From NCBI RefSeq assembly GCF_008370495.1, contig NZ_VTUX01000005.1, positions 186,001 to 250,000 on the forward strand: a stretch of DNA of 64,000 bases, written 5' to 3'. The number at the start of each line of letters is the position of its first letter. The first letter of the stretch is position 1. A program made the translations under genes and the position numbers. The DNA is from Pseudohalioglobus sediminis. Lineage in GTDB: Bacteria > Pseudomonadota > Gammaproteobacteria > Pseudomonadales > Halieaceae. This document shows, one piece after another, positions 13,453 through 58,878 of this stretch. The notes beneath the pieces are model-generated. The model saw only the letters and a program-made list of their open reading frames with translations. It made no database searches and had not been told where the DNA came from.

Positions 13453-13527
13453 TCGCGCGCCTGTTAACACAACCCTGAATCTCTGCGGCTGGCATCAGTG
13501 CGGCTGGCCCCAGTAAGGAGCTGTCAC

Positions 13528-14316
13528 TTGTTCTACGGAAAACTCATCGGCGGTGTTATTGGCCTGCTGGTTCTCGGGCCGATCGGGCTGATCCTGGGTG
13601 TGATTGTCGGCCACCTGTTTGATAACGGCTTGATGCAGACCCTGAAGTTTGCGTCACCCCAGAATATCGCTCGCATCAAGCAGAGCTTTTTCGAAACCAC
13701 GTTCCTCCTCTCCGGGTTCCTGGCCAAGGCGGATGGGCGGATTTCGGAACAGGAAATTGCCCACACTGAAGCCGTGTTCACGCAAATGGGGCTCAACGCT
13801 GAACAACGCAAGCGGGCGATCGAGTTTTTCCAACGCGGCGCGGCGGCGGATTTCCAGCCGGAACCTGCGGCAGCGGCCTTTATTGAAATAACCAGGGGCC
13901 AGCGCCAGCTGTGCCAGACACTGCTGTTCTTCCTGATCTCCCTGGCCCTTGCGGACCACCGGATAGACGATGCGGAGCAGGCCGCCCTGCAGCGCATTGC
14001 CACCCTGCTGGGGTTCAGCGCCGCCGAGCTGGCCCAGTTCCTGCGCATGGCACAGGCGCAGGATCATTTCCATGGCTCGGCCGGTTACGCCGCCCAGCCG
14101 GGTACCAGCCTGGAAGACGCCTACGAGGCGCTGGGGGTTTCGGCGGACGTGGACGACAAGGGCCTGAAACGCGCCTATCGCAAGTTGATGAGTGAGCACC
14201 ACCCGGACAAGCTGATCGCCCAGGGCGTGCCCGAGGATATGGTCAAACTGGCCACGGAGCGCTCGCAGGAGATCCAGGCGGCTTATGAAATGATCAAGAA
14301 GTCGCGTGGTGGTTAG
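13528..14316 (+). CDS. djlA: DnaJ-like co-chaperone DjlA
   Basis: 262 aa from the TTG at 13528, chosen because AAGGAG lies 7 nt upstream and the protein then begins FYGKLIGGVIGLLVLGPIG, the single GxxxG-type membrane helix of DjlA. The middle (about 55-175) is a TerB-like helical domain. The C-terminal ~70 residues are a J domain with the essential HPD in MSEHHPDKL. DjlA is an inner-membrane J protein that works with DnaK and has been linked to envelope stress signalling in E. coli. It is followed by the structured repeat at 14343. Confidence 0.93.
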   Translation: MFYGKLIGGVIGLLVLGPIGLILGVIVGHLFDNGLMQTLKFASPQNIARIKQSFFETTFLLSGFLAKADGRISEQEIAHTEAVFTQMGLNAEQRKRAIEFFQRGAAADFQPEPAAAAFIEITRGQRQLCQTLLFFLISLALADHRIDDAEQAALQRIATLLGFSAAELAQFLRMAQAQDHFHGSAGYAAQPGTSLEDAYEALGVSADVDDKGLKRAYRKLMSEHHPDKLIAQGVPEDMVKLATERSQEIQAAYEMIKKSRGG

Positions 14317-14342: not shown

Positions 14343-14558
14343 GCTAACCGGCCCTCCACCGGGCCATGCGTTCCGGCACGGCCACAAGCTCCGCCGCTTC
14401 TTGGGCCGCCGCGTAACTCGGGCAGCGGTTGCTGGGCGCAACCGCTAAGCGCCCTCAGACATCCACGGCGGAAAGCCCCCGGCGAATCGGCTGCGCAAAC
14501 AGCGGTGGCCTGATTGTTCCGGAACGCATGGCCCGGCGAAGGGCCTGCATACGTTAGC
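14343..14558. repeat. structured repeat element, copy A
   Basis: A ~216-bp element between the convergent djlA and trkH genes. Outer arms are GCTAAC (14343-14348)/GTTAGC (14553-14558) and a 27-nt stem 14350-14376/14519-14545 with two mismatches, including a perfect 16-bp pairing GGGCCATGCGTTCCGG. Inside are GGCCAC (14380-14385)/GTGGCC (14505-14510), a longer imperfect helix 14393-14405/14478-14491, and a hairpin AGCGGTTGC-tgggc-GCAACCGCT (14424-14446). The core from about 14385 to 14518 is clearly similar to copy B at 57444. The family is unknown to me. Strand is undetermined; it reads in the orientation of copy B on the + strand. Confidence 0.75.
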
Positions 14559-56021: not shown

Positions 56022-57338
56022 CTAGAGCTCCTTGAAAAATACCTTGGAGCTGCGCTGCAGGTTGTACAGCGCCTGCTTGCGTTCCGGCAATTGATCGCGC
56101 TGCGCCTCGGCAAAGCCCTGTTCAAGGAACCAGTGCGCCGTTTGTGTGCTGAGCACGAATACCCTGTCCAGGCCAAAGCCCATGGCCTCCTGTTCGAGCT
56201 CCTGCAACAGGCGTTTCGCCCTGTTGCCTCCGCGGTAGTCCGGGTGGGTCACGATGCAGGCCAGCTCGCCGCAGCCGTCTTCAGGGAAGGGGTATAACGC
56301 GGCGCAGGCGATGATGCGGCCATCGCGCTCCAGTACGCGGAACAGGTCGATTTCCTGCTCCAGCAACTCCCGTGAGCGTTTCAGCAGGATACCCTCCTGC
56401 TCCAGCGGCTCGATCAGTTCAATGATGCCGCCCACATCGTCGATGTCGGCGCGCCGTGATTTCTCATAGTCACTGGCCGACACCAGGGTGCCGCTGCCGT
56501 CATGGGTGAAGAGTTCTTCCAGCAGCGCACAGTCATCGCGATAGCTGAGCACGTGACAACGGGGCACGCCCTCACGGCAAGCCTGCCGGGCGGTGTGAAT
56601 CAGGTCGGCCTGCTCGGCATCGTCCGGGCTGAGCTCGTCGAGTTCTCCCACGGCAAGCTGGTGAATCAGCTCTGCACTATCGTCAACGATACCTTTCTCC
56701 GCACCGAACAGGATCAACTTGTCGGCGCAGATCGCCGCAGCACAACTTACCGCGACATCTTCCAGTGCCAGGTTGAAGATTTCGCCGGTAGGGGAGTACC
56801 CCAGCGGTGACAGCAGCACGATAGAATCGTCCTGCAGCTGGCGGTGAATGCCCTCGGAATCGACGCGGCGCACCTTGCCGGTGTGCAGGAAGTCCACGCC
56901 GCCCACCACGCCGATCGGCCTGGCGGTGACGAAATTGCCGGAGCACACGCGCATCTGTGATCCCTGCATTGGGGAATTGGGCAGGCCCATGGATAACAGC
57001 GCTTCGATCTGTGCCCGCAGCGATCCGGCGGCATCCTTCACGTGTTCCAGCGCAGCGGTATCAGTGATGCGCACATCCTGGTGAAAACCGGTCTCCAGGC
57101 CCGCAGTTTCCAGCCGCTGGGCGATTTGCGGGCGCGCGCCGTGGATCAGTACCAGCTTCACGCCCAGGCTTTTCAGCAGGGCGATGTCATGAATGATGTT
57201 GGGGAAGTTTTCGTGTTGCGCCACCTCGCCCCCCAACATCAGCACGAAGGTCTTGCCCCGGTGCAGGTTGATGTAGGGTGCGGTGTTCCTGAACCAGCGG
57301 ATGTGGGACCGGCCTGGCGTTGTCACGTTGTTGTCCAA
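56022..57338 (-). CDS. argA: N-acetylglutamate synthase
   Basis: 438 aa. The start is the TTG at 57338 or the GTG at 57326; neither has a strong ribosome site. The N-terminal amino-acid-kinase-like domain (about 1-290) begins RWFRNTAPYINLHRGKTFVLMLGGE and contains ALLKSLGVKLVLIHGARPQI. The C-terminal GNAT domain has IVTHPDYRGGNRAKRLLQELEQEA. It is the first, arginine-inhibited step of arginine synthesis. It is downstream of argE by a 388-bp gap that contains the structured repeat. Confidence 0.96.
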   Translation of the reverse strand: MDNNVTTPGRSHIRWFRNTAPYINLHRGKTFVLMLGGEVAQHENFPNIIHDIALLKSLGVKLVLIHGARPQIAQRLETAGLETGFHQDVRITDTAALEHVKDAAGSLRAQIEALLSMGLPNSPMQGSQMRVCSGNFVTARPIGVVGGVDFLHTGKVRRVDSEGIHRQLQDDSIVLLSPLGYSPTGEIFNLALEDVAVSCAAAICADKLILFGAEKGIVDDSAELIHQLAVGELDELSPDDAEQADLIHTARQACREGVPRCHVLSYRDDCALLEELFTHDGSGTLVSASDYEKSRRADIDDVGGIIELIEPLEQEGILLKRSRELLEQEIDLFRVLERDGRIIACAALYPFPEDGCGELACIVTHPDYRGGNRAKRLLQELEQEAMGFGLDRVFVLSTQTAHWFLEQGFAEAQRDQLPERKQALYNLQRSSKVFFKEL

Positions 57339-57443
57339 CTTGTTGATTAATAGCGGATTATCAAGGTTACCGAAGTCCGGGCAGTTTACCTAATGGCAAT
57401 TTTGCACAAGCCTGATGAGGCGGGGTGTTTTTTGGCGGGCGCC

Positions 57444-57639
57444 GGTCCGTCGGCGGGGGGATACCCTGTCAACGACCGCAAGCTCCGTCGCGTTTTCGGG
57501 CCGCTGCGTAACTCGGCAACGGTTGCTGCTCGCAACCGTTAAGCGGCCTCAGACATCCACAGCGGACTGCCCCCGGAAACGCGACTGCGCAAAATGCGGC
57601 GGCCTGATTGTTGCCAGGGTATCCCCCCGCCAACGGCCC
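57444..57639. repeat. structured repeat element, copy B
   Basis: A ~196-bp element between argA and argE. The outer helix 57444-57473/57610-57639 has 27 of 30 positions paired, including GGCGGGGGGATACCCTG/CAGGGTATCCCCCCGCC. Inside are GACCGC/GCGGCC (57474-57479/57599-57604), a 14-bp helix GTCGCGTTTTCGGG (57487-57500)/CCCGGAAACGCGAC (57572-57585) with one G-T, CCGCT/AGCGG, and the hairpin AACGGTTGC-tgctc-GCAACCGTT (57518-57540). The core, with CTCAGACATCCAC and GCCTGATTGTT unchanged, aligns to copy A at 14343. The outer helix is different in sequence but still paired. The rest of 57339-57726 holds nothing recognised. Confidence 0.75.
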
Positions 57640-57726
57640 TCGTTACTTGCTTGAAGCGAAAGGGAAACGGTTGCATCCGGGCGGAAAGCCGGCCGGGCCA
57701 AAAGGCATGGAGCTGTTACGAGAGAA

Positions 57727-58878
57727 TCACAGGCAATAATGCCGAATAAACTGTTCCAGCAGGGCGATGCACGGTTTGATCTGATCCAGCGGCATAAACT
57801 CGTCCGGCTGGTGGGCCTGGTCGATAGAGCCCGGCCCCATGACGATGGTCTGCATGCCCAGCTGCTGCAGGAACGGGGCCTCGGTGGCGAAAGCCACGGC
57901 GATGGCGCTGTGGCCGGTGAGCTTCTCCGCCAGTTGTACCAGTTCGCTGTCCGCGCTTTCTTCAAACGGTGACACATCCTGGATCAGCGACCGCAGCTCA
58001 ATGTCCAGGCCGCGCTGCTGCCCGACCAGGGCCAGGCGCTGGCGAATATCCTCGCGCACCTCGGCGTTGTCACCACCGGGGGTCATGCGCAGGTCGAAAT
58101 GCAGCTCACTTTGCCCACAGATGCGATTGGGGCTGTCGCCGCCGTGGATATGACCCAGGTTGAGTGTCGGGTAGGCCACCTCAAATAGCGGATTGCTGTA
58201 GCGCTCGGCCATTTCGGCGCGGAAGTTGACCAGGTCACCCATGACCGCGTGCATCCCCTCCAGCGCATTGTTACCCAGCGCAGGGTTGGAGGAGTGGCCA
58301 GACTGCCCGTTGATGTGCACCGCCTCCATCATGATGCCCTTGTGCATGCGCACCGGCACCAGGGAGGTGGGTTCGCCGATGATGGCCGCACGCGCTTTCG
58401 GCCGGCCGGCGGCAGCCAGCGCCCGGGCCCCGTTCATGGAGCTCTCCTCGTCGGCGGTGGCCAGCAGAATCAGTGGCTGTTGCAGTTCGACGTCGGTAAA
58501 GCTGGTTGCGGCGGCCAGCGCCAGTGGGAAAAACCCCTTCATGTCGGTGCTGCCAAGACCGTAAAGGCGGTTGTCACGTTCGCTCAGCGCCAGCGGGTCG
58601 CTCTGCCAGCGGCCTTCGTCAAAGGGCACCGTATCGGTGTGTCCCGCCAGCACCAGGCCGCCGGGACCGCTGCCGCGGGTGGCAATCAGGTTGGCTTTGT
58701 TGCCGCCCGGGTTGACCTCCTGGATTTCCGTGGAGAAACCCATGCCGGACAGCCACCCGGCCAGCAGGTCGATGACACCGCGATTGCCCTGGTCCCACGC
58801 CGGATCGGTGGAGCTCACCGAGGCCGTGCCGACCAGTTGTGTGAGTTGTTCGATGATGCGTTGTTCGATGCTAGGCAT
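57727..58878 (-). CDS. argE: acetylornithine deacetylase
   Basis: 383 aa, M20 metallopeptidase family. Metal-binding motifs are LAGHTDTVPFDEGRW, YGLGSTDMKGFF and ATADEESSMNGARAL; the dimerisation domain starts near residue 180. It releases ornithine from N-acetylornithine in the linear arginine pathway. It pairs functionally with argA downstream, which supports the assignment over other M20 enzymes. Confidence 0.94.
   Translation of the reverse strand: MPSIEQRIIEQLTQLVGTASVSSTDPAWDQGNRGVIDLLAGWLSGMGFSTEIQEVNPGGNKANLIATRGSGPGGLVLAGHTDTVPFDEGRWQSDPLALSERDNRLYGLGSTDMKGFFPLALAAATSFTDVELQQPLILLATADEESSMNGARALAAAGRPKARAAIIGEPTSLVPVRMHKGIMMEAVHINGQSGHSSNPALGNNALEGMHAVMGDLVNFRAEMAERYSNPLFEVAYPTLNLGHIHGGDSPNRICGQSELHFDLRMTPGGDNAEVREDIRQRLALVGQQRGLDIELRSLIQDVSPFEESADSELVQLAEKLTGHSAIAVAFATEAPFLQQLGMQTIVMGPGSIDQAHQPDEFMPLDQIKPCIALLEQFIRHYCL

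What the first reader, a model, noticed from the sequence alone, without database searches (positions are those of the whole stretch)
14343..14558. Copy A of an unrecognised structured element shared with 57444-57639
Two intergenic elements 43 kb apart share a core (CAAGCTCCG, GCGTAACTCGG, CTCAGACATCCAC, GCGCAAA, GGCCTGATTGTT), roughly three-quarters identical by eye. Their flanking sequences do not match, but each forms its own outer helix (A: 16 bp perfect inside a 27-nt arm; B: 27 of 30 paired). Internal helices also change on both sides together: hairpin A24-T46, G25-C45 in A is A-T, A-T in B; the second helix shows A-T in A and G-C in B. Paired change without sequence conservation is the mark of selected folding. 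Copy A lies between convergent djlA and trkH.
Basis: partly seen in the sequence, partly recalled or inferred. Interest (0 to 1): 0.85.

Follow-up and report, generated by a model that had tools for sequence, protein, structure and literature searches.

The report
Dispersed antisense hairpins at gene tails
The two look-alike stretches are members of a large family, not found in the RNA family library, of long hairpin elements that mostly sit just past the ends of genes in marine bacteria, keep their fold while their stem letters change, and appear to spread around genomes by an unknown route.

Summary
Copies A (14350-14545) and B (57444-57639) belong to a family with five copies in this genome and matches in 39 of 140 genomes of its taxonomic family, 37 of 390 sampled from its order and 13 of 369 from its class. 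No Rfam family reaches its cut-off. On 50 selected cores 28 of 34 pairs covary. Outer stems (median 27 pairs) differ between most copies but stay paired. On the strand that is minus for A and B, odd pairs are G-T 160, A-C 45, so that strand folds. Its 3' end points at a gene tail in 132 of 170 copies, median 44.5 nt from the stop; close neighbours diverge in 41 of 44 pairs. No promoter or U-tract signal. Close copies share the core far more than the outer arms. Best reading: a non-autonomous, REP/BIME-like dispersed hairpin, sharing a niche with TwoAYGGAY, recognised as one strand (RNA or ssDNA). The enzyme is unknown: no model match in the 30 Y1 transposase loci examined. Main rival: a barrier to antisense transcription.

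The parts
14350..14545 (-). Copy A, whole element (outer stem plus core); C at 14349 and T at 14546 flank it
   Evidence: sequence; model match G000:C19:200378-200518; outer stem 25 of 27 Watson-Crick
14350..14376 (-). Copy A outer arm next to the djlA tail (3' arm of the functional minus strand)
14378..14518 (-). Copy A conserved core (inner variable stem and apical domain)
14519..14545 (-). Copy A outer arm on the trkH side (5' arm of the functional minus strand)
57444..57639 (-). Copy B, whole element; C at 57443 and T at 57640 flank it
   Evidence: sequence; G000:C19:243472-243612
57444..57471 (-). Copy B outer arm (3' arm of the functional strand)
57472..57612 (-). Copy B conserved core
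57613..57639 (-). Copy B outer arm (5' arm of the functional strand)
13498..14316 (+). djlA; its stop codon lies 33 nt before copy A
   Evidence: NF006948, 279.9 bits
14639..16087 (-). trkH, convergent with djlA
56022..57338 (-). argA-like amino-acid N-acetyltransferase, downstream of copy B on the minus strand
57727..58878 (-). argE-like acetylornithine deacetylase, upstream of copy B on the minus strand

Best explanation
The stretches are copies of a non-autonomous dispersed hairpin element, REP/BIME-like in its way of life but a distinct family. Shown: one strand (minus for A and B) folds into a rod made of a copy-specific outer stem, a conserved junction (AAYCAGGCC..GGCCGT), an inner variable stem and a conserved apical domain. 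Shown: copies are multiple, patchy between species, sometimes tandem or decayed, and mostly placed with their 3' end toward a gene tail. Read from the alignment, not tested: a YGAG/CGAG tandem-GA motif in the apical domain. Inferred: a factor acting in trans recognises this single-strand fold and spreads or homogenises the core, while the outer arms only have to pair and so drift fast. Inferred: the preference for gene tails comes from where insertion is tolerated or targeted. Not shown: the enzyme, and whether the recognised strand is RNA or single-stranded DNA.
For: Five copies at unrelated loci in one genome. Matches in 39 of 140 family genomes, 16 of 28 genera. Site A: both flanking genes found in all 7 other genomes of the genus, no listed model match between them. 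Site B: both flanks found in 6 of 7 (in G030 on separate contigs; in G025 one flank only), no listed match there. Five tandem copies of period 178 in G026. Haliea relatives show intact, decayed and internally deleted versions in one gap, one species with only a terminator-like hairpin there and one with a Y1 transposase gene and GTAG repeats there. 24 copy pairs with core identity at least 0.88 and unrelated flanks: mean core 0.90, inner-stem strand 0.84, outer arm 0.60; arm below inner stem in 23 of 24. Strand bias G-T 160 against A-C 45, and 33 against 8 in the core. No promoter or U-tract.
Against: No enzyme is tied to it: 0 model matches in the 30 Y1 loci fetched (of 45 Y1 matches listed), and this genome has no reverse transcriptase match. 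The tail-facing orientation (132 of 170) is stronger than I would expect of a mobile element and could mean a host role. A 3.6-fold G-T excess is easier to explain for RNA than for DNA. The one clean-looking empty site belongs to a different hairpin and cannot tell insertion from deletion. Gene conversion between old sites could also homogenise cores.
Confidence: 0.48

Rival explanations
1. A host-used RNA barrier. Antisense transcripts coming toward a gene tail (read-through from a convergent gene, or backward transcription from a nearby promoter) fold the element just before they reach the gene, and are stopped or degraded there.
For: 3' end faces a gene tail in 132 of 170 copies, median 44.5 nt from the stop; divergent neighbours 41 of 44; G-U bias on exactly that strand; one copy faces a tRNA gene tail.
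Against: U-tract after the stem in only 3 of 176. A terminator-like hairpin, read by eye, persists beside the elements in Haliea. In 52 of 167 copies the called gene on the 5' side reads away from the element. Sites turn over and decay. Copy B itself breaks the rule (between codirectional argE and argA).
Confidence: 0.27
2. A trans-acting sRNA or CsrA sponge, as proposed for TwoAYGGAY.
For: A TwoAYGGAY-type hairpin occupies the djlA-trkH gap of G030 (41.7 bits, cut-off 43); among matches listed, 11 of 13 neighbour pairs diverge (my count); PMC4333381 argues that TwoAYGGAY binds CsrA (passage read).
Against: No promoter signal. The GGA of the apical domain is not kept: the pair at columns 59-112 is C-G in 26 and G-C in 19 of 50 cores. 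The fold is an unbranched rod, not two AYGGAY hairpins.
Confidence: 0.1
3. A REP element of a TnpA-REP (RAYT) system in the strict sense.
For: Inverted pairs, intergenic, hairpin. Y1 transposase match in 21 of 39 element-bearing genomes against 12 of 101 others (my count; Fisher p 7e-7). C and T flank the element on the other strand in most copies, and REP cleavage is at C|T (PMC8266576, passages read).
Against: No GTAG motif beside it; about 190 nt, not about 40; no model match in 30 Y1 loci. Genome size and completeness confound the co-occurrence.
Confidence: 0.1
4. Ordinary terminators, chance palindromes or alignment artefact.
For: GC-rich genomes hold many inverted repeats.
Against: Conserved core across genera, covariation, hardly any U-tract, null arm pairing far lower.
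Confidence: 0.02

Closest known systems
TwoAYGGAY RNA (Rfam RF01731)
   Same: Poorly conserved long outer stem, several copies per genome, found in the djlA-trkH gap of G030 (41.7 bits, curated cut-off 43), listed neighbours mostly divergent; one mixed pair with our element in G025 (TwoAYGGAY match 39.4 bits, under the cut-off).
   Different: Core is two hairpins with AYGGAY loops; ours is an unbranched rod. The four RF01731 matches of this genome and its five copies do not overlap.
REP/BIME sequences with TnpA-REP
   Same: Intergenic palindromes, inverted pairs, tandem copies, no gene inside.
   Different: REPs are short, carry a 5' GTAG motif and have been described beside the tnpA-REP gene (PMC8266576, passages read); ours are about 190 nt with copy-specific stems and were not found in the 30 Y1 loci examined.
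Stem-loop repeat families of bacterial genomes (PMC2267715; only the search listing and start of abstract seen)
   Same: Repeated intergenic sequences able to fold.
   Different: That work builds on an analysis of 40 genomes; I did not check whether any of its families is this one.

Membership tests
TwoAYGGAY (RF01731) | Match to the Rfam covariance model | tested here: not met
   No RF01731 match over the cut-off in the window; none for copy A at E up to 5
TwoAYGGAY (RF01731) | Two hairpins with AYGGAY loops | tested here: not met
   Unbranched model; commonest apical loop C(GCA)G
TwoAYGGAY (RF01731) | Variable outer stem | tested here: met
TwoAYGGAY (RF01731) | CsrA binding (proposed) | not testable with these tools
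   needs a binding assay
REP/BIME with TnpA-REP | GTAG-type tetranucleotide 5' of the hairpin | tested here: not met
   Flank profile of 174 copies shows A|GG..CC|G on the functional strand, no GTAG on either side
REP/BIME with TnpA-REP | Copies beside the tnpA-REP gene | tested here: not met
   0 matches at E up to 1 in 30 Y1 loci, of 45 Y1 matches listed; the Y1 match of this genome (C23) was not among the 30, but none of the five copies lies on that contig
REP/BIME with TnpA-REP | Inverted pairs | tested here: met
   41 of 44 neighbour pairs divergent
Retron or group II intron | Reverse transcriptase in the genome | tested here: not met
   No RVT_1 match in G000; 22 of 140 family genomes have one
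Intrinsic terminator | U-tract after the hairpin | tested here: not met
   T-run of 4 or more within 15 nt: 3 of 176 on the functional strand, 9 of 176 on the other
Any curated Rfam RNA family | Match at the gathering score | tested here: not met
   0 in the window and 0 in 20 loci with relatives

The most novel reading that the evidence does not exclude
A mobile element whose mobile part is a single-strand fold with copy-specific arms: the core is copied or homogenised as a unit while each copy keeps or rapidly rebuilds its own long, nearly perfectly paired outer stem, and insertion is steered to the antisense side of gene tails. TwoAYGGAY would then be a second lineage of the same class, and both would belong to a large unrecognised class of tail-facing antisense hairpins.
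Probability: 0.2. Interest if true: 0.85.

Novelty: new variant of a known kind. Interest (0 to 1): 0.62.

Why it matters
It adds a structured element family that Rfam 15 does not hold, with copies in records named Halieaceae, Spongiibacteraceae and Pseudohongiella and weaker matches in Nitrosomonadales MAGs. Its geometry (antisense, facing a gene tail, neighbours diverging) and strand-specific pairing give a sharp, testable question: what recognises one strand of these rods? It also suggests that TwoAYGGAY, so far discussed as a candidate CsrA sponge, may be a dispersed element of the same niche.

Tried and rejected
REPtron reading: no model match in 30 Y1 loci. Reverse-transcriptase route: none in this genome; 10 of 39 element-bearing against 12 of 101 other genomes have a match (my count). 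Promoter-driven sRNA: the promoter score of the 5' flank equals shuffles (p 0.50) and the other flank (174 copies). Terminator: no U-tract. Plasmid or phage carriage: no match for one core (L044) in either collection. Rfam miRNA-type hits lie far under their cut-offs and look like generic long-hairpin matches. The idea that outer arms are captured from the insertion site: some paralogues share arms (L273 and L274), so arms can travel with the core; B and the C22 copy share 91% of the core but arms only at 0.50-0.59, near the random 0.45. The motif hit at C11:772288 is not the element. PMC9788540 (Alcanivorax sRNAs, passages read) gave nothing on this family. Papers: in the listings I saw no description of this family; two searches returned none; most subscription papers are not held.

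Rows dropped. Alignment A3 holds 50 of 69 distinct copies: length outliers, L060 and L072, sequences 88% or more alike and four more (L037, L055, two of L052) were left out, which favours clean pairing; 8 of the 34 pairs were added by me after looking at the same alignment. One search used 69 of 89 matches (18 double-fetched, 2 tandem copies left out). The 252 hits entered left out 9 of 127 matches and 6 of 71 (partial, truncated or weak); 54 of the 252 fell out as duplicates or too near a locus end, leaving 198; 22 of 198 had outer-stem score under 20 and were left out of stem and context counts. Gene context used a crude open-frame caller; 40 of 176 copies overlapped a called frame by more than 60 nt. 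The list is cut short. The scan used an exact apical motif; 90 of its 94 stretches had an R2 match at E 0.001 or better; L121, L139, L147 and L187 did not, so the Acidobacteria and Microbacterium records are not supported.

Full report
1. What is there. Copies A and B are at the stated places. BLAST of A finds four other copies in the genome: C11:636 kb, C19:243 kb (B), C2:66 kb and C22:85 kb, at 81-83% identity.

2. Spread. A model of the five cores (R1) matches 39 of 140 genomes of the family, 16 of 28 genera. A second model on 50 cores of the functional strand (R2) matches 37 of 390 genomes sampled from the order, 15 of 143 genera, and 13 of 369 from the class; of those 13 one is this genome and the other 12 are weak (34-59 bits). 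A pattern scan of named genomes gives 94 stretches, 90 with an R2 match: among the names Haliea, Halioglobus, Parahaliea, Pseudohaliea, Chromatocurvus, Mangrovimicrobium, Seongchinamella, Litorivivens and Pseudohongiella, and three weaker ones labelled Gallionella or Nitrosomonadales (48-55 bits). Rfam: none at cut-off in the window or in 20 loci with relatives.

3. Fold. On 50 selected cores, 96.1% of cells in a 34-pair structure are paired; 28 pairs change on both sides somewhere; 317 double-changed cells against 80.7 in shuffles and at most 78 in slid controls. Twenty-six pairs come from RNAalifold, eight I added by hand; choosing on the same alignment favours percentage paired. The outer stems, not part of that model, were aligned with a score that treats G-T and A-C alike: 198 distinct copies, 176 with score 20 or more, median 27 pairs. 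On the strand that is minus for A and B the odd pairs are 160 G-T, 45 A-C and 172 other, against 4581 Watson-Crick. The core gives 33 G-U and 8 A-C. The folded strand is therefore that strand, as RNA or as single-stranded DNA. Of 179 cores whose apical region was located, at least 122 end in a C(GNA)G loop (102 GCA, 11 GTA, 7 GAA, 2 GGA), a loop recalled as very stable in DNA and acceptable in RNA; it does not decide the matter.

4. Place. The 3'-side gene runs toward the element (tail to tail) in 132 of 170 copies with a called gene there, at median 44.5 nt (5th-95th percentile 5.6-172); neighbours within 700 bp diverge in 41 of 44 cases, two are minus-minus, one plus-plus. One copy faces the tail of a tRNA gene (L273). 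Copy A fits (33 nt from the djlA stop to the stem base). Copy B does not: it lies between codirectional argE and argA. The base reads A|GG...CC|G on the functional strand in most of 174 copies (A 72%, G 72%); I see no other clear flank motif, no promoter signal and no U-tract.

5. Turnover. The flanks of A were both found in the other 7 genomes of the genus, those of B in 6 (in G030 on separate contigs), and no listed R1 match lies between them. In the djlA-trkH gap, which I read in four of the seven, G030 holds a TwoAYGGAY-type hairpin (41.7 bits against a cut-off of 43); G031 holds two long hairpins that Rfam does not match at E 0.05 and that I read as similar by eye; G029 has none and reads as if one of the G031 hairpins were absent precisely; G027 has a short gap without one. 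In Haliea one gap holds two or three elements in G017, two in G018 and G020, one plus an internal deletion derivative in G019, a decayed one with a masked stretch in G022, only a terminator-like hairpin in G024, and a Y1 transposase gene with GTAG repeats in G021 (G023 breaks there). G026 has five tandem copies.

6. Core against arms. In 24 pairs with core identity at least 0.88 and unrelated flanks, the mean is 0.90 for the core, 0.84 for one inner-stem strand and 0.60 for the outer arms; random arms score 0.45, sd 0.08, by the same best-shift measure. Some paralogues share arms (L273 and L274), some show scattered compensatory or wobble changes (the G336 group), and B and the C22 copy share 91% of the core but hardly the arms. 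Gene conversion of cores between older sites, or copying of the element followed by fast drift of arms, would both give this.

7. Mechanism. The pattern fits a non-autonomous dispersed hairpin recognised as one strand by a trans-acting factor. The factor is not identified: Y1 transposases co-occur (21 of 39 against 12 of 101), but none of the 30 Y1 loci examined, of 45 listed, carries a match, and this genome has no reverse transcriptase match. The alternative, a barrier to antisense transcription, explains the orientation best but not the lack of termination signals, the decay and the species turnover. I put the first at 0.48 and the second at 0.27.

8. Known relatives. TwoAYGGAY (listed in Weinberg et al. 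2010, PMC2864571, passages read; proposed as CsrA-binding in PMC4333381, passage read) shares outer stem, niche and pair geometry (11 of 13 neighbour pairs listed diverge, my count; that list is of matches at E 0.001 or better, 29 of 140 genomes, many under the cut-off) and forms one mixed pair with our element (G025), but has a different core. REP elements share the way of life but not GTAG, size or gene association (PMC8266576, passages read). I file it under neither.

Noticed in passing
L057 (G026:C12:194580-195430): Five tandem copies of the element with period 178; inner copies lose the matching left arm.
   Followed up: partly
L324 (G021:C18:22900-24800): Y1 transposase gene with many GTAG-type repeats occupies the convergent gap that holds our elements in other Haliea.
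   Followed up: partly
L081, L082 (djlA-trkH gap of G030 and G031): Different long-stem hairpins, one of TwoAYGGAY type, occupy the gap that holds copy A here.
   Followed up: partly
L326 (G019:C11): Second element reduced to one arm by a deletion that fits short CGGG repeats.
   Followed up: partly
L229-L236 (G501, G305, G401, G485, G263, G259, G382, G325): Shorter forms (81-113 nt); three of the eight match only the inner stem and apical part of the model, and several lie close to other long hairpins.
   Followed up: no
G000:C19:92216-92348, C18:323822, C21:117737, C21:359142: This genome also carries four TwoAYGGAY matches, one over the Rfam cut-off.
   Followed up: no
L182:2581-3720 (G017:C8): About 405 bp holding an element pair appears tandemly repeated, giving a chimeric middle copy with an N in the record.
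   Followed up: no
L176, L184, L209: Weaker matches (48-55 bits) in Gallionella/Nitrosomonadales MAGs; ancient, transferred or mis-binned.
   Followed up: no
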